64,000 bases of DNA from Verrucomicrobia bacterium SCGC AAA164-M04 (GTDB taxonomy: Bacteria; Verrucomicrobiota; Verrucomicrobiae; Verrucomicrobiales; Akkermansiaceae): contig KB912070.1 of NCBI GenBank assembly GCA_000383735.1, positions 69,334 through 133,333 of the forward strand. The letters run 5' to 3'. The notes under the pieces are model-generated. The model was not told where the DNA came from. It made no database searches and saw nothing but the letters and a program-made list of their open reading frames with translations. Made by a program: the position numbers and the translations under genes. Shown here piece by piece: positions 3,227-63,022 of the stretch (the stretch's first letter is position 1; each line of letters starts with the position of its first letter).

Positions 3227-3331
3227 TTCTTCAAGGTAGTGATGAGGGAGAATGAGGGAAGAGAAAATTAAGGGTCTACAAGGATTAAAAAAACTCTTTT
3301 GTTATTTAAAGAATTTGGGATTCTTTGATTA

Positions 3332-4840
3332 ATGAAGGAGGTAGGTTTTTTTAAGGTTTTTAGCTCATTCTTTGGAATCCTATTTTGTGCTGGAGCACTT
3401 GCACAGAATCCTGTTTCGCTACCGTCTAGTCCTCCCGAGAAAGAAGGGGTTCCCTCAGCTGCTATCTTGTCTTTTATCGAACGGCTGGAGAAAGATATTG
3501 ATGCGGTTCATAGCTTTATGATTCTTCGTCGCGGCAAACGGATCGCACAAGGATGGTGGGCACCATTTGATGAAACGACGCCGCATCTCATGCATTCGCT
3601 GAGCAAGAGCTTCACTTCTACAGCTGTTGGATTAGCGATTGAGGAGGGCCAGCTGTCACTTAATGATCCGGTGATTTCATTTTTTCCAGATGATACGCCA
3701 GCCGATCCAAGTTGGCAGCTCAAGGCTATGCGCATTCGGGATTTACTTACAATGACGACTGGGCATCGCAAGGAACCGCTACTTTTCAATACGGAGTCTC
3801 ATTGGGTGAGGGCTTTTCTTCATTCGGAAATAGAGTTCAAGCCAGGAACTCATTTTCAATACAACTCCGCGGCTACCTATATGCTCTCGGCGATTGTGCA
3901 ATCGGTTACAGGTGAAATGGTTGTGGACTATCTGGACGAACGTCTCTTTCAACCGTTGGGGATTAAGAAGCCTGATTGGGATCGCTCACCAGACGGAATC
4001 AATACGGGCGGTTGGGGGCTCAGGGTTACTACTGAGGATATTGCGAAGTTAGGTCAGCTCTACCTTCAGAAGGGGATGTGGCAGGGGAAACGTATCCTTT
4101 CAGAAGCCTGGGTTCAGGAGGCAACCTCGAAACAAACTTCTAATGGGAGTAACCCCGATAATGATTGGGATCAGGGATATGGGTTTCAATTTTGGCGTTG
4201 TCGAAACAACTGTTACCGCGGGGATGGTGCATTCGGACAATTCTGCATCGTTATTCCCGAGCACGAAATGGTGGTGGCGATTACATCGGGAACGAATGAT
4301 ATGGGAGGGGTAATGGAAGCTGTATGGGAAATCCTCCTGCCGGCCATGGCGCCAAAGCCTATTGAGCCCGATACTACGACCTTTCAATCTCTGGCGGCTA
4401 AATTGAATGACTTAAGCCTCCCATTAGTTGAGGGTGAATCTCAATCTCCAGTATCGGAACAACTCGCTCAAAGAAAATTTAAAGTTTTTGATAATGAAGC
4501 TGGTGTTAATTCAGTTTCTTTTGATTTCCACGGAAAGAACCATCGGATCACGATAGAAATGGAACATGGAATGGAAATCCTTTACCTAGGAAGTGATAAT
4601 TACACCACTTCCAAATTGAATGATCACCTGCCCTACACACAGAATATGAGAAGCCGAATTGGCGCCAGTGGTGCTTGGGTTGAACCGAATGAGTATCAGG
4701 CAAAGATCTATCTCACTGAGACCCCGGCAAGTATTCTGTATACCTTCCGCTTCGAGAATAACCGTATGAATTGGACAAGCCAATTACGTCACGCACTATT
4801 TGGGCCTAGGAAATTGAAAATCTTGAAAGGGGAATTCTAG
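3332..4840 (+). CDS. Secreted serine hydrolase of the beta-lactamase (class C/PBP-like) family
   Basis: The 502-residue protein has a signal peptide ending ALAQN. Residues about 35-340 form a beta-lactamase-related domain: the S-x-x-K motif is 'HSLSKSFTS' (Ser89, Lys92), the second element is 'FQYNSAATYM' (Tyr-x-Asn near residue 177), and 'GGWGLRVTTEDIAKLGQLYL' is the usual fold landmark. The family includes esterases, D-aminopeptidases and penicillin-binding proteins as well as lactamases, so antibiotic hydrolysis should not be assumed. The C-terminal about 150 residues form an accessory domain typical of larger family members. Confidence 0.87.
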   Translation: MKEVGFFKVFSSFFGILFCAGALAQNPVSLPSSPPEKEGVPSAAILSFIERLEKDIDAVHSFMILRRGKRIAQGWWAPFDETTPHLMHSLSKSFTSTAVGLAIEEGQLSLNDPVISFFPDDTPADPSWQLKAMRIRDLLTMTTGHRKEPLLFNTESHWVRAFLHSEIEFKPGTHFQYNSAATYMLSAIVQSVTGEMVVDYLDERLFQPLGIKKPDWDRSPDGINTGGWGLRVTTEDIAKLGQLYLQKGMWQGKRILSEAWVQEATSKQTSNGSNPDNDWDQGYGFQFWRCRNNCYRGDGAFGQFCIVIPEHEMVVAITSGTNDMGGVMEAVWEILLPAMAPKPIEPDTTTFQSLAAKLNDLSLPLVEGESQSPVSEQLAQRKFKVFDNEAGVNSVSFDFHGKNHRITIEMEHGMEILYLGSDNYTTSKLNDHLPYTQNMRSRIGASGAWVEPNEYQAKIYLTETPASILYTFRFENNRMNWTSQLRHALFGPRKLKILKGEF

Positions 4841-5155
4841 GGGGGTGCCCTTAATTGGGGAAGTCGCAATTAGACCGAAGTTGATTAGAAAGAAAAGGGA
4901 TTTCTTGGATCAATTAGAACGAAAGAAATAAGGACCCTTAAATACGCTCAAGCCGTCTTTTAACTATCATGGAGCTCTGAGGTTTGTTGGTTAGCAAGCA
5001 AAAGAAAAACACCCACGCTATTTCCGAGATAACTAGACACGGCTTGATAACTCGCCTTACGTTTTCTTGTTCTTCGCATCTCTCCTAAGCCGATTTCTGG
5101 CGTTAAGGTTTCCTTGTTTAGGCCTTTTAAAATGTAGCACTGACTGTTCCCGGTT
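4841..5155. other. Intergenic region between convergent genes
   Basis: This 315-base stretch separates the ends of the serine hydrolase (+) and the phytanoyl-CoA dioxygenase (-). I see no open frame with a credible start and no clear intrinsic terminator; only short imperfect inverted repeats are present. Confidence 0.5.
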
Positions 5156-5998
5156 TCATGAGGATTGATTTTGTGTCAGGCTTTTAGCACTCGTATCGTC
5201 CCGATTAAGGTCAGCAAACTCGGTGTGCATACGGCTGGCATGGTTAGTTTCGATAGCAAGAATACGATTATCTTCGACCTTTTCCAACTTGGTGTATCTG
5301 GGATGATGGGAATCCTTGTATGGATCATTAGAGGCCGCATTATAACAGCAAATCATAGCCCAGCGTGGATGATCAGACTCATTGGCATCGGAAGCATGTA
5401 ATGTGTTGGAATGGAAAAATAAGGCATCGCCCGGGTCCATTGTGACATGAACGAGATCCAGTCTCTTCTTTGCTTCTTCGACCCGTTCCATATCAGCCCC
5501 GGCCTGATCTCCTGAAAGAATATGGTTAATCCTACCCAACTTATGGGATCCTTTAATGACCTGCATACAACCGTTCTCAATCGTTGACTGGTCCACCGCT
5601 ATCATAACACTGCATAGGTTTGGGGAGAGTACGCCATTCTGATACCAGTATCCATAGTCCTGATGCCAAGCCCAAGCTCCGCCCACTTTCGCATCTTTTA
5701 ATATCATTTTTGAATGGTAATGGTATGCCTCCTCTTTGAGTATTTCTTCAACGCGATCAACCATCTTACGGCAACGGGCAAACATTCCGTAGATTCCATC
5801 GCCTGGATGATTCCATAAAGCTAGGCGAACTGCGTTGCCTTCTCCGTCGTCTCTTTGAGTGGATGATTTATCCATTTCGTTATCGCTACGGGCAGCATGT
5901 CCAAGTGAGTCAATTTCGTCTTTGGAAAAGAGATTGCGAACCACGATGTAACCATCATGGTCATAATCGCTTAATTGTTCTTCTGTAAGTAATTTCAT
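5156..5998 (-). CDS. Phytanoyl-CoA dioxygenase (PhyH) family Fe(II)/2-oxoglutarate oxygenase
   Basis: The 280-residue cytoplasmic protein starts 'LTEEQLSDYDHDGYIVV', the typical PhyH opening. The iron-binding facial triad is visible as His112 and Asp114 in 'AWHQDYGYW' and a distal His in 'HSNTLHASDAN' (about residue 201). Arg212 in 'DHPRWAM' is the probable 2-oxoglutarate carboxylate ligand. Known members hydroxylate small molecules such as phytanoyl-CoA or ectoine. Verrucomicrobia and planctomycetes carry many uncharacterised copies, so the substrate is open. It has no operon partner: it ends convergently with the upstream gene, and its promoter region faces the esterase at 6222. Confidence 0.9.
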   Translation of the reverse strand: MKLLTEEQLSDYDHDGYIVVRNLFSKDEIDSLGHAARSDNEMDKSSTQRDDGEGNAVRLALWNHPGDGIYGMFARCRKMVDRVEEILKEEAYHYHSKMILKDAKVGGAWAWHQDYGYWYQNGVLSPNLCSVMIAVDQSTIENGCMQVIKGSHKLGRINHILSGDQAGADMERVEEAKKRLDLVHVTMDPGDALFFHSNTLHASDANESDHPRWAMICCYNAASNDPYKDSHHPRYTKLEKVEDNRILAIETNHASRMHTEFADLNRDDTSAKSLTQNQSS

Positions 5999-54036: not shown

Positions 54037-57000
54037 ATGCAAACTAGGATCCCTCCTGAGATTACTAAAGGTCTCACATCTCTCCGTCGTCGGATCAGGT
54101 GGATTCAGCTCGTTCGGGGTTTGCTCAAAACTGCAAGTGTGGTCCTTATGGGTTTGCTTGTTATTGTGGCCCTCGATTTCTTCCTGGCGCCCTTGCCTTC
54201 GTGGGCGCGGGGCACGCTTTTCTTTGGGTGGCTTACTGCGGCAGGGCTCGCTGCGATTCTTTTTATTGCGAAATCATTATTGACCAAGATCTCGCTTGTG
54301 AAGCTTGCGCGGTGGTTGGAGGAGCGTCATCCGGAGGTTCAAGAGAGAATTAGTACTGCCTTAGAGCTTTCTGATCATCCGGAGGGAATTTCGCCCGAGT
54401 TGCTTTTGGAGCTTTCTAATGAAGCGGCTGCTGATATCGGCACGGTTGATCCGAATGAAGAAGTTGCTGGAAGTCGTGTGCAGCGATCTATGTGGTCGGT
54501 TGCAACCTGTTTGGTGGCAATTATTGCTTTGGTGGCGATTTGGCCTCGTGAGATGAGTCGCCTTTTGACTCGTGCAGTTTCGCCATTCACGGAGTTGGGG
54601 AATGCCGGAGCCTTTCGTTTCGATATTAGTCCAGGAGACCTCGAAGTTCTGGAAGGTGATAAGGTTCAGATCGATCTTACCTATACTGGTGATTTGGAGA
54701 AGCCTCTGCAGTTGGTCATTGAAAAAAATGGGAATCTCATATCCGAGACTCTTGAGCCGAGCTCTTCGGATGGCAATTCCCACCGCTACTCGTACCATCT
54801 GCATTCGGCGGAAGCTGGATTTAAATACTCCGCTCTTGTGGCTGGAAATGAAAGCGATCGCTTCGAGGTGAAGGTTTATCGGCTTCCGCGTCTTTTGGAG
54901 CCCACCGTGAATTTGCAGTACCCTCCTTATACCGAGTGGCCAGATCGAGAAGTTTCGTTGGGAACTGGAATTCAGGCCCTGGCTGGAACTGAGGTAACCT
55001 TGAAGGGGCGTTTTGATACTCCGATTGATCGGGGAGAGGTTCTGTTTGATTCAGGCTCGCTGGGTGAAATAGAGCTGGAACCTACGGCGCGCGGAACGAT
55101 TGTGTCTTGGAGGACGATTTTGCAACCGGGACTTGAAGGCGCTGCCTTAATGAAGGTGGAGCATCGTTTGGGCCGCGAGCTTGATGCCGCGCAGTTTCAG
55201 ATCTTAGCTGAGGAAGATTCTGCTCCGGAAGTGGAGATTTTAACTCCGATTCAAAGGGAGTTTCGGGTGAAACCAACCGAACAGGTGGTTCTGGTCTACT
55301 CTGCCGTTGAGCAGATTGGGATCGCCAAGGTCGAAATCGAGCTCGAAGTGAATGGTAAGCCGGTCGAATCGCTTGCTGAACTCCTTCCGGAGCGAATCGA
55401 TGGTGCGAACGGAAAGCTGTGGGAAGGGGAAGCAATGGTTCTACTGGGAAATATTGTGGCAAAGCACAAAGGCGCGCTACAAGTTAAGATGCGTCTAGCG
55501 GTTAGTGATAATCGCCCTGAATGGCTCTCAGGTCCCGGTATAGGCTACTCGGAGTGGCTTGAATTTAAGCTGGATATGAACGCCGAGTCTCTGGTTCGCC
55601 AAGAATTGCGAAATCAGGACAGTGATCTTAAGAAGGCTATTGAGGATGCGATTAAGAAGGTTCGAGAGGCTAAAAATAAGATGCAAATTGCCAAGGGGCA
55701 ACTAGACAAAGAGCAAGTCAGCGAGCGTGCAGAAGAGGTCCTTGCGCAGGCTCGTGAAAAGTTGGAGGACGCGAAAGAAGATCTTACCGAGCTCAGCGAA
55801 CGGATGAAACAGAGCGTGCAGGAACATCGACGTGATGACGTAGAGCAAGCGGTGGCGAAACTCGATGAGGCAAAGAGGTCAGTTGAAAATGCCCCGCTTC
55901 AAGACAATCCCGAAGCTCGGAGATCTGAGGTCGATAATGCCCTTCGCGAAAGCGAGGATGCGATTAATGATCTTCAGCAATTACGTCAGGAGATTCAAAA
56001 GGACCAGCCTAAGACCAATGATTTGGCTAAGCTTCAGGAAATGGCCCAGAAGCAGGAAGAATTGGCGCGGGAGGCTGCTGAGGAAACTCCCGATCAGGAC
56101 TGGGAGAATGAGCAACGCCAGATGCAAGAGAAGATTCGGCAGGAGGTCGCTCAATCACCTGAAGCAAAAGCTGCTGCGATGAAGGCACAGGCAGATCAAG
56201 CAATGGAACTTTCTAATGAGGCTGAAGAGTTGAAGAAGGCTCAGGAAGGGCTTTCAAAGTTGAGCGAACAAGCTGAGCCGGCTCCTCAAAAGATGAATGG
56301 CGATCAGCTAAAGAATGCGCTCATTCAGGAACAGGAAAATGCTCTGACTGAAGCTCGCCAAGAACTTGCCGAGGCACGCCGGGATAACGAGGCTGAGAGA
56401 GCTGGAGATCTGAACAATGCCATCAATGAGGTTCAAGAAACTACTAATAAAGCACGCCAGTCGAAGCTCGAGCAAGCCGCGGAATTAGCAAAAAAGGCTG
56501 CGGATAAGTTGGCAGAAAGTTCTGATCAATCCCCATCTCAAGAAGCATTGAAGGAAAAGCAGGATAAGCTTTCGGAGGCCTTTGATTCGCTAGCTGAAGG
56601 GAAGACCGAGAAAGCCCAAGATGCTTTGGAAGAGATCCAGGAGATGGTTAACCCTCGTGAGATTGCAAAGGCTTTGGCGAAAGAACAACTAGAGGCCGCT
56701 TATGAAGCTCGACAGGAAATGTCAGAGGCTAAGCGTGATAACGAAGATCGTGCTGAAGATTTGGCTAATGCAGCAAAGGAAGCCACCGAAGCAGCTGAGG
56801 AAGCCCAGAAAAATAATCCTGAGCAAGCCGCGCAAGCTGCTCAAAAAGCAGCCGAGGAACTTGCCAAAAACGCTGAAGCTTCGCCCACTCAAGAGGCGTT
56901 GCGAAATAAGCAAGAAAAAGTCGCCGAAGCTCTAGAGGCTCTTTCTAGTGGAGAAGCTGAGAGAGCTGAGGAAATCCTCGAGGAACTTCAGAATTTGCTC

Positions 57001-58761
57001 AACCCGCGTGAAATCGCCGAGGCGCTTGCGAAGGAACAGAGTGGGGCTGCGCAAGAAGCTCGCGAAGAAATGGTTGAGGCAAAAAAGGCTGGGGAAAGCC
57101 GAGCAGAGGACCTCGCAAAAGCTGCCGAAGAAGGGGGTAAGGCCGCTGATGAAGCTCAGAAAAACAATCCTGAAATGGCGGCCGAAGCAGCGATGAATGC
57201 TGCCGAAGAATTATCGAAAGCTACCGAGAAATCAGGTTCACAGAAGTCTCTTCAAAATAAGCAGGAGAAGTTGGCGGAAGCATTCGAAGCTCTTGCGGAA
57301 GGAAATACGGCGGAGGCTCAAGCAACTCTAGAGGAAGTTCAGAGCATTGCTGATCCGGATAATGTTGCGAACGCTCTTGCGGAAGCTCAGAAAGATATTC
57401 TCGAGGGGGCGAAGGACGAATTGAGTGACGCCCAGAATGGTCAGGAGGCTCGTGCTGAGACTCTTCCAAAAGCAGTTGAGCAGGCTCAGGAGGCTTTCAG
57501 TGAAGCAAGGCAGGCTGATGCCAAAGCTGCCGCTGAAGCGGCTCAGAATGCTGCTGAGGAACTGGCTAAGGGTGCTGAATCGTCGCCGTCTCAACAGTCT
57601 CTTCAAAATCAGCAGGAGGCGCTCGCCGAGGCTTTTGAGGAGCTCGCGGAGGGTAACACCAACGAAGCCCTTCAGGCACTCGAGAAATTGCAGTCCGAGC
57701 GTTTGAATGGAGCCCTTGAACAAGCTTTAGCTCGAGAGCAAGAGGCAATCGTCGAAGGAACCCAGCAGGAGTTGAGCGAAGCGCGTGAGATGCAGGAAGC
57801 GCGTGCCAATGATCTGCCAGAAGCATTGGCCCAAGCGGAGAGTGCGTTACAGGAGGCAATCAAAGGGGACCCACAAGCTGCTGCAGAAGCTGCTCAAACA
57901 GCAGCCTCCGAACTTTCTAAAGGTGCTGAGGTTTCCGACTCTCAAAGTTCTTTGCAAGAGCGTCAGGAGGGGATTGCTGAAGCCTTGCAAGATCTTGCGG
58001 AAGGTCGAGCTGGGGAAGCTCTTGCTGCCCTGCAGGAAATGCAAAGCGAGCGGGCTGCTGATTTAGCTCAAGCGATTGATGATGTTGCAGCGGTCGAGGG
58101 TGATCCATTAAGTCAGGCAAGCCAGATGGCAAATCAGGGGGCTCAGAATGCGAGCCAGGCTTCGCAAGCGCAGCAAGATGGGCAGGCCCAGCAAGCTTCT
58201 CAACAGCATCAAAAGGCGGCTCAAAGATTTGCGCAAGCTCAGCAGTCACTTCAAAGCGCTTCGCAACAGTTAGCTCAGAAAGCTTCTCAGGCTGCAGAGC
58301 AAGGTGAGAATCCCAACCAAGCTCCAGCGCCAGGAGATGCAATGGCTGAAGCCTTGCAGCAGAGTTCACAAGCTGCAAATTCCGCGCAATCCGGACAACA
58401 GCAGCAGGCCGCAGCCCAAGCTCAGGCCGCAGCCGAGGCTTTGAAGCAGGCAGCGAGCGAAGCGATGTCCAATATGAAAAAAGGTGGTAAGCCGGGTGAT
58501 CCAGCTCAGGCGAATCAACCTGGAGAGCCTAGTGATCAAGCGGCTCCTCCTAGTGATGAAGCGAAGGAAGGAGTTCGTCAGGCGCAGGCTAATCAAGGTG
58601 TTCCTGCCGAGCTCGCTAAGCTAGGAATCAATGCTGCGGATTGGGAAAAGATCCAAGCTACTCTCAAGACAGATGTCAGTGGATCCCGCCGCGCAGTAAT
58701 ACCTGAAGATTACCGGGGCCTCGTCCAAAACTACTTTGAGCAAGTCTCTAAAAAGAAATGA
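54037..58761 (+). CDS. Giant membrane-anchored coiled-coil protein (DUF4175-like N terminus)
   Basis: The 1574-residue protein begins with a basic segment and two membrane helices (about residues 28-50 and 60-80), then a helical block 'LARWLEERHPEVQERISTAL', as in DUF4175-like proteins. A third membrane segment is near residue 155. Residues about 190-520 are beta-rich Ig-like repeats. From residue 525 to the end it is almost entirely Ala/Glu/Gln coiled coil. Residues about 760-1350 hold five copies of a 117-118-residue unit. The last about 200 residues are Gln/Ala-rich. The pattern matches the large coiled-coil gene that in Planctomycetes and Verrucomicrobia accompanies BatA/MoxR-type clusters; that context lies outside the window. 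A structural cell-envelope role is inferred. Confidence 0.8.
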   Translation: MQTRIPPEITKGLTSLRRRIRWIQLVRGLLKTASVVLMGLLVIVALDFFLAPLPSWARGTLFFGWLTAAGLAAILFIAKSLLTKISLVKLARWLEERHPEVQERISTALELSDHPEGISPELLLELSNEAAADIGTVDPNEEVAGSRVQRSMWSVATCLVAIIALVAIWPREMSRLLTRAVSPFTELGNAGAFRFDISPGDLEVLEGDKVQIDLTYTGDLEKPLQLVIEKNGNLISETLEPSSSDGNSHRYSYHLHSAEAGFKYSALVAGNESDRFEVKVYRLPRLLEPTVNLQYPPYTEWPDREVSLGTGIQALAGTEVTLKGRFDTPIDRGEVLFDSGSLGEIELEPTARGTIVSWRTILQPGLEGAALMKVEHRLGRELDAAQFQILAEEDSAPEVEILTPIQREFRVKPTEQVVLVYSAVEQIGIAKVEIELEVNGKPVESLAELLPERIDGANGKLWEGEAMVLLGNIVAKHKGALQVKMRLAVSDNRPEWLSGPGIGYSEWLEFKLDMNAESLVRQELRNQDSDLKKAIEDAIKKVREAKNKMQIAKGQLDKEQVSERAEEVLAQAREKLEDAKEDLTELSERMKQSVQEHRRDDVEQAVAKLDEAKRSVENAPLQDNPEARRSEVDNALRESEDAINDLQQLRQEIQKDQPKTNDLAKLQEMAQKQEELAREAAEETPDQDWENEQRQMQEKIRQEVAQSPEAKAAAMKAQADQAMELSNEAEELKKAQEGLSKLSEQAEPAPQKMNGDQLKNALIQEQENALTEARQELAEARRDNEAERAGDLNNAINEVQETTNKARQSKLEQAAELAKKAADKLAESSDQSPSQEALKEKQDKLSEAFDSLAEGKTEKAQDALEEIQEMVNPREIAKALAKEQLEAAYEARQEMSEAKRDNEDRAEDLANAAKEATEAAEEAQKNNPEQAAQAAQKAAEELAKNAEASPTQEALRNKQEKVAEALEALSSGEAERAEEILEELQNLLNPREIAEALAKEQSGAAQEAREEMVEAKKAGESRAEDLAKAAEEGGKAADEAQKNNPEMAAEAAMNAAEELSKATEKSGSQKSLQNKQEKLAEAFEALAEGNTAEAQATLEEVQSIADPDNVANALAEAQKDILEGAKDELSDAQNGQEARAETLPKAVEQAQEAFSEARQADAKAAAEAAQNAAEELAKGAESSPSQQSLQNQQEALAEAFEELAEGNTNEALQALEKLQSERLNGALEQALAREQEAIVEGTQQELSEAREMQEARANDLPEALAQAESALQEAIKGDPQAAAEAAQTAASELSKGAEVSDSQSSLQERQEGIAEALQDLAEGRAGEALAALQEMQSERAADLAQAIDDVAAVEGDPLSQASQMANQGAQNASQASQAQQDGQAQQASQQHQKAAQRFAQAQQSLQSASQQLAQKASQAAEQGENPNQAPAPGDAMAEALQQSSQAANSAQSGQQQQAAAQAQAAAEALKQAASEAMSNMKKGGKPGDPAQANQPGEPSDQAAPPSDEAKEGVRQAQANQGVPAELAKLGINAADWEKIQATLKTDVSGSRRAVIPEDYRGLVQNYFEQVSKKK
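56314..58085 (+). repeat. Five tandem 117-118-residue coiled-coil repeats
   Basis: Unit starts near 56314, 56668, 57019, 57370 and 57724. Each holds a KEQ-like opening, then 'AQKNNPE'-type or 'EAAQNAAEELAK' text, then 'SLQNKQEKLAEAFEALAEG' and a closing helix. Protein identity is clear, but third-position differences show that the copies are not recent exact duplicates. Confidence 0.8.
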
Positions 58762-61312: not shown

Positions 61313-61591
61313 CGCAGGAGAATATACAGGATTCTAAATATTCGGGAAACCTAAATTCTAGGACGATAGGGGGAGGAGCGATCAAGCTAGGAAGAATCTT
61401 CTCTAAGAATGCTGTTTTGAAGGTGTTTAGAGAACTGAATCAGCGCTTTTTCTAATGTAATAACCATCACTTCATCAGTTGGCCGATTTTAAATTTAGAA
61501 GATTATTGAAAATCGATAGATCGGGTTCGAAACCTCATCTGCTGAATTGGGGATTGGCAAACTCGAAAATGGCGGCTAAGCGATGTGCTCG

Positions 61592-63022
61592 ATGCCAAAG
61601 GTCTTTATTAAAACCTACGGGTGACAGATGAACGAGCGGGATTCCGAGCAGGTTGCTCAGACGTTTGCCGAGCGTGGTTACACTCTTACCCCCAAAGAAC
61701 AGGATGCTGATGCGATCCTGATCAATACCTGTAGTGTCCGCGATCAAGCGGAGCAAAAAGCTTTGGGGAAAATGGGGATGATGGGGAAATACCGCGAAAG
61801 CCGCGATCATGTGGTCTATGGCTTCATGGGGTGCATGGCACAAAGTCGAGGATCAGAGCTTTTTGAACGGGTGCCTCACCTTGATTTAGTTGTAGGAACG
61901 CAAAAGTATCACCGCGTTTTTGATTATGTGGATAGCATTTTAAATCGTCGCCTCCAGACGCGTATGGACGAGGTTGGGGTGGAAATGGTCACGGGACGAG
62001 TCGAGGATGAAATCATTAAGATTAATCAGGATCGGATTATCTCGGCGAGAATGGTTGATACTGAAGAAGAAGAGGGCAGCCAAAATACAATCAAGGACCA
62101 TATCCCTAGAGAGGGCCAGCAAGCAACTTCCTTCGTCAGTATTATGCAGGGGTGTAATATGCGGTGTTCGTTTTGTATTGTGCCGGATACGCGGGGCAAG
62201 GAAAGAGGAAGACCAATTCCCGATATCGTTAGTGAGGTGAGAGATCTCGTAGGCAAGGGGGTGAAAGAGGTCACTCTGCTCGGGCAAATTGTAAATCTTT
62301 ATGGTCGGACCGAGTTCCCCATAGTGGATGGGAAATCTCCATTTGTGCAACTTCTGGAAGCAGTACACGAAATCGAGGGTCTCGAAAGGATCCGCTTTAC
62401 CAGTCCACATCCTATTGGTTACCGCGATGATTTGGTAGAGGCTTTTACTTATCTGCCGAAGCTCTGTTCACATATTCACTTTCCGATGCAGAGCGGGAGC
62501 GATCGGATTCTCAAAAAGATGCGACGACCTTACAAAAACGAGAAATTTCTTACGATCTGTGAAAAGATGCAGGCTGCACGACCGGATCTCGCAATCACTA
62601 CGGACGTTATTGTGGGGTTTCCTGGCGAGACCGAGGAAGATTTTGAGGAGACGGTAGCGTGCATGAAACGAATTGGTTTTGATAACAGCTTCATTTTCCG
62701 ATACTCGAAGCGTAAAGATACTCCGGCCGCCGAGATGGACGAGCAATTGAGCGATAAGGTGAAGGAGGCGCGCAATCAAATCCTCCTTCGAATTCAGGAG
62801 CAATTGACGACCACGAAAAACGCAAAATTAATTGGGACTGTTCAACAAGTGCTCTGCGAAGGTCCGAGTAAAACGAATAAAAAACGCCTTAGCGGCCGAA
62901 CAAGCCAGAACAAGATTGTAATCTTTGATGGTAACGCTGAAAGAATGGCCGGACAGTTGCTTGATGTGAGGATTGAAGACTCAACTGGCTATACCCTTTA
63001 TGGGACGCCCGAGATTCATTAG
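61592..63022 (+). CDS. miaB: MiaB tRNA methylthiotransferase with probable selenocysteine
   Basis: Read from ATG 61592 through an in-frame TGA at 61622-61624, the product is 476 residues: M-P-K-V-F-I-K-T-Y-G-U-Q-M-N-E-R-D. Homologs have 'KTYGCQMNERDS', so the TGA sits at the first Cys (residue 11, E. coli Cys10). The other auxiliary-cluster Cys are at 47 ('INTCSVRDQAE') and 81 ('GFMGCMAQ'). The radical-SAM C-x-x-x-C-x-x-C is 'GCNMRCSFCIVP' (188, 192, 195), and a C-terminal TRAM domain ends 'TGYTLYGTPEIH'. MiaB adds the 2-methylthio group to i6A37 of tRNA. An alternative start is 61583. Starting at ATG 61628 instead would delete a required cluster ligand. An SECIS-like hairpin lies 25 nt downstream of the TGA. 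Confidence 0.88.
61643..61661 (+). promoter_or_regulatory. Putative bacterial SECIS hairpin of miaB
   Basis: Stem GAGC (61646-61649) pairs with GCUC (61655-61658) around the loop AGGUU. The lower stem continues U-A and C-G past one C-A mismatch. There are 25 nt between the UGA and the loop, inside the 16-37 nt range for bacterial SECIS. The loop resembles E. coli fdhF AGGUCU and shares GAGC-GGU-GCUC with the TlpA-like gene hairpin. Confidence 0.7.

What the first reader, a model, noticed from the sequence alone, without database searches (positions are those of the whole stretch)
61583..63022. MiaB with TGA at the first cluster-ligating cysteine: probable Sec-containing methylthiotransferase
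Seen: upstream of the ATG at 61628 the frame reads M-P-K-V-F-I-K-T-Y-G, TGA, Q-M-N-E-R-D. MiaB proteins have Y-G-C-Q-M-N there; the Cys is one of three ligands of the auxiliary iron-sulfur cluster (here positions 11, 47, 81). Inference: Sec at residue 11, which would give a cluster with one selenolate ligand in an enzyme that inserts sulfur into tRNA. I do not recall such a MiaB form being described. An annotation from the internal ATG would wrongly lack a cluster ligand.
Basis: partly seen in the sequence, partly recalled or inferred. Interest (0 to 1): 0.95.

Follow-up and report, generated by a model that had tools for sequence, protein, structure and literature searches.

The report
Selenium version of tRNA enzyme MiaB
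In this bacterium and dozens of related Verrucomicrobiota, the gene for the tRNA-modifying enzyme MiaB has a UGA codon and a conserved potential RNA hairpin where other bacteria encode a cysteine that holds an iron-sulfur cluster, so the enzyme is predicted to carry selenium on the cluster from which it donates sulfur.

Summary
The frame from ATG 61592 reads MPKVFIKTYG-TGA-QMNERD and continues as an intact MiaB (TIGR01574, 465 bits; cut-off 355). TGA stands at this codon in 60 of 70 records found by a pattern scan of one-genome-per-species contigs, including cultured Rubritalea marina and R. profundi, and in 26 of 52 relatives whose codon could be read; the other 26 have Cys. UGA genes carry a potential 8-bp hairpin with a GGU loop 26 bases after the UGA. 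In 58 of them, Glu and Gln codons of this hairpin are the only invariant ones among 94 conserved two-fold columns; 95.5% of hairpin cells pair, against 48% in 26 Cys genes. SelA, SelB, SelD and tRNA-Sec(UCA) lie in the nearest genome and in R. marina; R. profundi has them too, with selB split between two frames. No second miaB was found in the UGA genomes searched. Sec and Cys exchanged repeatedly on the tree. A 2026 table of 119 prokaryotic selenoprotein families lists no methylthiotransferase. The prediction is a selenolate ligand on MiaB's auxiliary cluster. Se content, ligation and benefit are untested. The window's own assembly is not held.

The parts
61592..63022 (+). miaB coding region, read through UGA: 476 residues plus stop; predicted Sec at codon 11
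   Evidence: TIGR01574 miaB 465.3 bits (cut-off 355.3) for the read-through translation from 61583; UPF0004, Radical_SAM and TRAM domains; start from conservation of MPKVFIKTYG among relatives; length
61622..61624 (+). UGA codon at the first auxiliary-cluster ligand position (residue 11), predicted Sec
   Evidence: aligns with Cys of solved MiaB 7mjv; TGA in 60 of 70 pattern hits from genome contigs
61643..61650 (+). 5' arm of the predicted SECIS hairpin (UCCGAGCA)
   Evidence: pairs 22-40 to 29-33 counted from UGA = 1-3; the GAG codon and the first two bases of the CAG codon, each 58 of 58
61651..61653 (+). apical loop GGU of the predicted SECIS, 26 bases after the UGA
   Evidence: GGT in 42 of 42 distinct UGA sequences
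61654..61661 (+). 3' arm of the predicted SECIS hairpin (UGCUCAGA)
   Evidence: the window forms 7 of the 8 pairs, C24-A38 being a mismatch
61628..61630 (+). internal ATG (Met13 of QMN) used as start by databases; that form lacks the first ligand
   Evidence: the 120 best of 7998 scored database entries, the only ones listed, are 464 aa
61730..61732 (+). Cys47, second auxiliary-cluster ligand
   Evidence: Cys in 58 of 58 UGA and 26 of 26 Cys forms
61832..61834 (+). Cys81, third auxiliary-cluster ligand
   Evidence: Cys in 58 of 58 and 26 of 26
62153..62176 (+). radical SAM CX3CX2C motif (Cys188, Cys192, Cys195)
   Evidence: invariant in 58 of 58 and 26 of 26; Radical_SAM PF04055

Best explanation
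The gene at 61592-63022 is a miaB whose codon for the first auxiliary-cluster cysteine is UGA, followed by a conserved potential hairpin with a GGU loop, and it is predicted to be translated with selenocysteine at residue 11, which would make one of the three protein ligands of the sulfur-donating [4Fe-4S] cluster a selenolate. Shown here: the UGA, its conservation, codon and pairing constraint on the hairpin in UGA genes only, the intact other ligands, the Sec machinery in close relatives, and repeated Sec/Cys exchange. Inferred: SelB acts on the hairpin and delivers Sec-tRNA(UCA) at UGA; Sec11, Cys47 and Cys81 hold the auxiliary cluster; the enzyme makes ms2i6A37 like other MiaB. The likely benefit, untested, is a cluster that is easier to re-form or less easily lost to oxidation, since selenolate is the softer and more reversibly oxidised ligand.
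For: Family and ligands: TIGR01574 465.3 bits; alignment to solved MiaB 7mjv puts its Cys at this codon; spacing U-X35-C-X33-C fits the CysX35-36CysX32-33Cys motif given in PMC5352715 (passage). Conservation: TGA in 60 of 70 pattern hits and in 26 of 52 relatives read (codons); 53 of 386 genomes of the order, in 7 genera, match the pattern. SECIS: of 94 two-fold conserved columns only two have a top codon of 98% or more, Glu19 (GAG 58/58) and Gln20 (CAG 58/58); Val21 (GTT 53/58) and Ala22 (GCT 47/58) lead the 75 four-fold columns; 26 Cys genes there use GAA 12, GAG 9; CAG 14, CAA 11; GTG 12, GTC 11, GTT 2 (whose own count starts at 0). Pairs: 321 of 336 cells paired in 42 distinct UGA sequences, 100 of 208 in 26 Cys; 7.59 pairs a gene against 4.34 (maximum 4.90 of 300) under synonymous recoding; Cys genes sit within their null (3.85; 2.96-3.92); pair 24-38 is U-A 17, C-G 11, U-G 10, C-A 4. 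Machinery: SelB over cut-off in 25 of 26 UGA and 10 of 26 Cys relatives (Fisher 1.3e-5, counts entered by hand, kinship not corrected) and in 7 of 7 named UGA genomes; SelA and SelD; tRNA-SeC tca. SelD is itself UGA-coded in 8 of 9. No second miaB found. MiaA in 10 of 10 genomes searched.
Against: Folding alone does not show a special hairpin: z 0.04, -0.48 and -0.58 against shuffles, and Rfam finds nothing in the window. The window forms 7 of 8 pairs; pairs 23-39, 24-38, 26-36 and 29-33 fail in 1, 4, 5 and 5 of 42 sequences. Five of 26 UGA relatives (G002, G009, G015, G021, G027) lack a tRNA-Sec over cut-off, as does one of the 7 named UGA genomes (G070), and ARAGORN did not call the one of G067. 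G009 lacks SelB over cut-off though it has SelA and SelD. R. profundi selB is split between two frames. Most of these are draft genomes. The window's own assembly is not held. Two UGA miaB in other phyla (L070, L085) lack SelB and SelA; they keep only 2 and 4 of the 8 pairs and are probably errors or decayed. A Cys form exists beside SelB in the same genus (G012), so Sec is not indispensable. No protein or selenium data.
Confidence: 0.88

Rival explanations
1. UGA is a real stop of a short leader, and MiaB is made from the internal ATG at 61628, without the first ligand, as databases annotate it.
For: The 120 best database entries are all 464 aa. The ATG lies three bases after the UGA, so reinitiation is conceivable.
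Against: The codons before the UGA are conserved as protein while changing synonymously: Pro2 uses 4 codons, Val4 4, Thr8 3, each 58 of 58 for the residue. Hairpin codons are frozen only in UGA genes. In the same column the 26 other genes have Cys. UGA relatives carry SelB in 25 of 26.
Confidence: 0.04
2. UGA is read through, but as another amino acid (Cys, Trp or other) by a suppressor tRNA or code change.
For: Not directly excluded, since no peptide was seen; whole genomes were not scanned for other UCA tRNAs.
Against: The UCA-anticodon tRNA found is tRNA-SeC; UGA ends 10 of 41 long window ORFs; the Sec-type hairpin and SelA/SelB/SelD are present.
Confidence: 0.03
3. Sec is inserted, but gives no advantage: Sec and Cys are near-neutral alternatives at this ligand in lineages that keep Sec machinery for SelD and others. 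This contests the benefit, not the insertion.
For: 7 changes between U and C on the tree; one clade of all UGA forms is rejected (p-AU 7.7e-51; 6e-5 without L092). G012 and G035 have SelB but Cys.
Against: In the genus 23 of 24 genes read keep UGA although one base change would make Cys, and Sec insertion is costlier and less efficient (recalled). No stop is listed at the first ligand of the RimO-like paralogue pieces.
Confidence: 0.3
4. The UGA copies are decaying pseudogenes or sequence errors.
For: Plausible for L070 and L085, single cases without SelB, SelA or the hairpin.
Against: 60 records with no other stop in the aligned part, at 62-98% identity to the window (about nine are cut by the end of the stretch fetched); the other five cluster cysteines are kept in 84 of 84 genes; no other miaB found.
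Confidence: 0.01

Closest known systems
MiaB, cysteine form (TIGR01574; solved 7mjv-7mjz)
   Same: Domains, radical SAM motif, ligand spacing, score over the curated cut-off
   Different: First auxiliary-cluster ligand codon is UGA with a SECIS-like hairpin
Heterodisulfide reductase HdrA, Sec form (CxxU; Table 1 of PMC13188914)
   Same: Sec in an Fe-S protein; recalled, not checked here: Sec as ligand of a [4Fe-4S] cluster
   Different: Energy-metabolism enzyme of methanogens, not a sulfur-inserting radical SAM enzyme
Radical SAM selenoproteins TIGR04167 and TrsS (Table 1 of PMC13188914)
   Same: Radical SAM family with a Sec residue
   Different: Other families; neither is named a methylthiotransferase there, and neither is among the 25 families shown for P0001 (the list holds at most 25)
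HesB-like selenoprotein (UxGP; Table 1 of PMC13188914)
   Same: Sec in an Fe-S related protein (relation to cluster scaffolds recalled)
   Different: Not known to act on tRNA (recalled)
Sec-containing SelD in the same genomes
   Same: UGA gene in the same organisms; in G001 and R. marina its minimum-energy fold also holds an 8-bp stem with a 3-base loop
   Different: Known selenoprotein family

Membership tests
MiaB methylthiotransferase (TIGR01574) | Score over the curated equivalog cut-off | tested here: met
   465.3 bits, cut-off 355.3
MiaB methylthiotransferase (TIGR01574) | UPF0004 + radical SAM + TRAM domains | tested here: met
   PF00919, PF04055, PF01938 over cut-off
MiaB methylthiotransferase (TIGR01574) | CX3CX2C radical SAM motif | tested here: met
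   Cys188, 192, 195 invariant in 84 of 84 genes
MiaB methylthiotransferase (TIGR01574) | CysX35-36CysX32-33Cys auxiliary-cluster motif | tested here: inconclusive
   Spacing and Cys47, Cys81 met; the first position is UGA, which fits only if Sec is inserted
MiaB methylthiotransferase (TIGR01574) | Converts i6A37 to ms2i6A37 in tRNA | not testable with these tools
   MiaA, which makes the substrate, is over cut-off in 10 of 10 genomes searched
Bacterial selenoprotein (SelB/SECIS dependent) | In-frame UGA aligned with Cys of homologues, conserved flanks on both sides | tested here: met
Bacterial selenoprotein (SelB/SECIS dependent) | Hairpin just after the UGA, with G in the first two loop bases, loop 16-37 bases away (criteria recalled) | tested here: met
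   8-bp stem, loop GGU 26 bases after the UGA, conserved in UGA genes only; single-sequence folding not significant
Bacterial selenoprotein (SelB/SECIS dependent) | selA, selB, selD and tRNA-Sec(UCA) in the genome | tested here: met
   Met in nearest genome G001 and R. marina; in R. profundi with selB split between two frames. The window's own assembly is not held
Bacterial selenoprotein (SelB/SECIS dependent) | Selenium in the protein | not testable with these tools
   needs 75Se or mass spectrometry

The most novel reading that the evidence does not exclude
Selenium-gated tRNA decoding. MiaB activity depends on selenium supply, because without Sec insertion translation stops after ten residues, or restarts three bases later as an enzyme that lacks a cluster ligand. 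Since the tRNA-Sec of these organisms carries the A36-A37-A38 target of MiaA/MiaB (target motif recalled), the Sec enzyme would also modify the tRNA that reads its own UGA. That closes a feedback loop between selenium status, UGA decoding and the reading of UNN codons.
Probability: 0.13. Interest if true: 0.95.

Novelty: new variant of a known kind. Interest (0 to 1): 0.86.

Why it matters
If confirmed, this is a new selenoprotein family in core translation: a tRNA-modifying enzyme, not a classical oxidoreductase, with a predicted selenolate on a cluster that serves as sulfur donor. How MiaB's auxiliary cluster gives up and regains its sulfur is, to my knowledge, an open question, and a natural Se-for-S ligand swap with spectroscopic handles (77Se, Se K-edge) makes it directly testable. 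The repeated natural Sec/Cys exchanges, one inside the genus, provide matched pairs. Two cultured, named strains carry the gene. The database entries nearest to it are shortened by the first ligand.

Tried and rejected
Folding of the window hairpin alone: not better than shuffles, so the case rests on comparison. Rfam on the window: no match. Viral contigs: 0 hits for the pattern. UGA-MiaB outside Verrucomicrobiota: L070 (Hyphomicrobiales) and L085 (Terriglobus) align as MiaB with TGA, but their genomes have no SelB or SelA over cut-off, their best tRNA-Sec matches are called tRNA-Leu and tRNA-Ser, and they keep 2 and 4 of the 8 hairpin pairs; not counted as selenoproteins. L063 and L076 (Elusimicrobia) are 5' fragments upstream of an intact Cys-miaB. 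L047, L057, L058, L069, L107 and L109 are chance hits or fragments. Wider sampling: 1 of 387 phylum genomes, G001 itself. A sequence form with Trp instead of Tyr/Phe before the Gly (as in E. coli, recalled) was not scanned, so other groups could be missed. Rows dropped: of 122 gene rows, 90 are distinct over the first 60 codons; 4 were too short (L051, L060, L087, L110) and 2 lacked SelB and SelA (L070, L085), leaving 58 UGA + 26 Cys. The tree uses 83 (57 + 26; rows under 330 aa also left out). The first tree held L070 and L085 as very long branches and was replaced; there 8 changes were counted, of which strongly supported branches force 5. The table mixes in rows of other phyla and was not used for counts. 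No structure prediction was run, since solved MiaB already fixes the ligand position.

Full report
Observation. The frame starting at ATG 61592 reads MPKVFIKTYG, then TGA at 61622-61624, then QMNERDSEQVAQ... and runs without further stop to TAG at 63020-63022. The ORF that a plain ORF list gives starts at ATG 61628, and the 120 best of 7998 scored database proteins, the only ones listed, all have that length, 464 aa. The read-through protein scores 465.3 bits against TIGR01574 (cut-off 355.3) and has UPF0004, Radical_SAM and TRAM domains. phmmer alignment to the solved MiaB 7mjv matches IETYGCQMN to our IKTYG-(UGA)-QMN, NTCS to NTCS and GCMA to GCMA. PMC5352715 (passages read) gives the auxiliary-cluster motif as CysX35-36CysX32-33Cys; here it is U11-X35-C47-X33-C81. 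Position 11 is UGA in 58 and Cys in 26 of the 84 genes compared; Cys47, Cys81 and the CX3CX2C cysteines 188, 192, 195 are kept in 84 of 84.

Distribution. The own assembly is not held; the nearest genome is G001, whose MiaB is 98% identical and has the same TGA. Of 58 relatives searched, the codon could be read in 52: TGA in 26 (23 of 24 read in the genus, plus G028, G034 and G054), Cys in 26; the miaB start was not found in G006, G017, G024, G030, G048, G058. A pattern scan of one genome per species gave 70 contigs; 60 are this gene with TGA at this codon. Of those, 59 have record titles of Verrucomicrobiota groups and one is called only 'Bacterium'. They include the cultured Rubritalea marina DSM 17716 (L105) and R. 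profundi SAORIC-165 (L071). In the order, 53 of 386 genomes match the pattern, in 7 of 50 genera, 52 of them in one family; the reversed control pattern matches none. In a phylum-wide sample 1 of 387 matches, which is G001 itself.

Single copy. In the 26 UGA genomes the only other matches (E up to 0.001) are pieces of 26-35% identity that I take for RimO; none of the pieces that cover the first ligand lists a stop. In R. profundi (one 4.16-Mb scaffold) and R. marina the UGA gene is the only match. Most of the others are drafts, so a missing second copy cannot be excluded in each.

RNA-level selection. Number the UGA 1-3. Pairs 22-40 to 29-33 form an 8-bp stem around the loop 30-32, GGU. In 58 UGA genes the four codons Glu-Gln-Val-Ala across the loop are GAG 58, CAG 58, GTT 53, GCT 47 + GCC 11. 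Of 94 conserved two-fold columns in the gene, those Glu and Gln codons are the only ones with a top codon of 98% or more; Val and Ala have the highest codon invariance of 75 conserved four-fold columns. Nearby controls vary: Gln12 is CAG 45/CAA 13, Glu15 GAA 39/GAG 17. The 26 Cys genes use mixed codons there. 321 of 336 pair cells are standard in 42 distinct UGA sequences, against 100 of 208 in 26 Cys sequences. The mean is 7.59 pairs per gene, against 4.34 (maximum 4.90 in 300 draws) when codons are redrawn from each gene's own usage; Cys genes lie inside their null. Pair 24-38, a synonymous Ser position against an Arg/Gln codon, takes U-A 17, C-G 11, U-G 10, C-A 4. The Gly codon before the UGA is GGA or GGG in 58 of 58, while Cys genes also use GGC and GGT. 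Against this: single-sequence folding is not better than shuffles; four of the eight pairs fail in 1, 4, 5 and 5 of 42 sequences, and one of them (24-38) fails in the window itself.

Machinery. SelB is over cut-off in 25 of 26 UGA relatives and 10 of 26 Cys relatives (Fisher 1.3e-5, counts entered by hand, relatedness not corrected), and in 7 of 7 named UGA genomes searched. The exception, G009, has SelA and SelD. In R. profundi selB lies in two overlapping frames of 394 and 309 aa, a read error or a recent break; in R. marina it is one open frame. tRNA-Sec over the Rfam cut-off is found in 21 of the 26 and 6 of the 7, but that cut-off also admits other long tRNAs: matches of 84-86 bases pass it in SelB-less genomes, and five of 14 control genomes pass it. 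ARAGORN calls tRNA-SeC with anticodon TCA in 11 of the 15 loci tested (nine different places), including G001, R. profundi and R. marina, and not in L118 from the UGA genome G067. SelD is over cut-off in 9 of 10 genomes and UGA-coded in 8 of these 9; its folded hairpins are similar in G001 and R. marina and more irregular in others. SelA is over cut-off in 9 of 12; the three without it are one SelB-less Cys genome (G033) and the two odd UGA genomes G061 and G062.

Evolution. On a protein tree of 83 genes with the trait column masked, Sec and Cys need 7 changes; holding all UGA genes as one clade is rejected (p-AU 7.7e-51; 6e-5 without the far L092; quick tree). Many branches are weak: in the first tree, which still held L070 and L085, 8 changes were counted and strongly supported branches force 5. 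G012 in the same genus has Cys, keeps SelB, and its hairpin region still forms 6 of 8 pairs. That is what a recent Sec-to-Cys change would leave.

Mechanism. Shown: UGA codon, hairpin constraint, machinery, ligand positions. Inferred: Sec insertion at 11 by SelB, and a three-ligand auxiliary [4Fe-4S] cluster with two thiolates and one selenolate. MTTases form a methylthio group on this cluster before the radical step (PMC10702137, passages). A softer, more reversibly oxidised ligand could change cluster potential, re-formation or oxygen tolerance; this is untested, and a near-neutral exchange remains possible. The anticodon loop of tRNA-Sec reads UCA-A-A, so A36-A37-A38, the MiaA/MiaB target (recalled), is present in G001 and both Rubritalea. 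MiaA is over cut-off in 10 of 10 genomes. Hence the bold reading of a selenium-gated decoding loop.

Literature. Paper searches (listings seen): selenocysteine+MiaB+selenoprotein+SECIS 0 papers; selenoprotein+methylthiotransferase+selenocysteine 3; MiaB+selenocysteine-containing+radical SAM 3; selenoprotein+MiaB anywhere 14; selenocysteine+iron-sulfur cluster+ligand+selenolate+4Fe-4S 2; Rubritalea+selenoprotein 0; none of the listed titles is on a Sec MiaB. A loose search on selenoproteomes listed 20 of 17,001. The 2026 review PMC13188914 (section 7, parts 1-2 of 3, read) says its table encompasses 119 families, and the table holds no MiaB or other methylthiotransferase; the word MiaB is absent from its main text. 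deep-Sep PMC12013277 (passages and section 7) lists nine new families, none of this kind. MiaB is also absent from PMC9312934, PMC2398784 and PMC1088965 (term searches only). Of PMC10779653 passages only were seen; they name no Sec-ligated [4Fe-4S] cluster. Only open-licence papers were searched, and supplements were not.

Verdict. A new selenoprotein family by sequence evidence: a new variant of a known enzyme, with selenium and function still to be measured.

Noticed in passing
L144 and L158 (genomes of the Elusimicrobia records L076 and L063): A 5' fragment of miaB with TGA at the same codon lies upstream of an intact Cys-miaB (about 265 and 1112 bases between the two motifs) in two Elusimicrobia genomes without SelB over cut-off.
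   Followed up: partly
L070 and L085: MiaB with TGA at the same codon in a Hyphomicrobiales and a Terriglobus MAG that lack SelB and SelA over cut-off and keep 2 and 4 of 8 hairpin pairs; probably error or decay.
   Followed up: partly
window 61592-63022 and relatives: The motif is LLGQIVN in 57 of 58 UGA and 26 of 26 Cys Verrucomicrobiota MiaB, where the solved MiaB 7mjv has LLGQNVN; a clade-wide Asn-to-Ile change.
   Followed up: no
61619-61621: The Gly codon before the UGA is only GGA or GGG in 58 of 58 UGA genes, while Cys genes use all four; an upstream context preference.
   Followed up: partly
L183, L186, L187: tRNA-Sec of G001, R. profundi and R. marina has A36-A37-A38, the recalled recognition motif of MiaA/MiaB.
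   Followed up: no
L188:3795-5701 (R. profundi): selB lies in two overlapping frames (394 and 309 aa): a read error, a break or a frameshift in this cultured strain's genome record.
   Followed up: partly
window 54037-58761: 1574-aa ORF with several long Ala/Glu/Gln-rich repeats and no Pfam match.
   Followed up: no
L185:914-2095 and 3262-5196 (G001): An ORF that looks like a NifS-type cysteine desulfurase or selenocysteine lyase (by eye, not searched) lies about 1.2 kb before selB, with one ORF between; a possible selenium donor.
   Followed up: no
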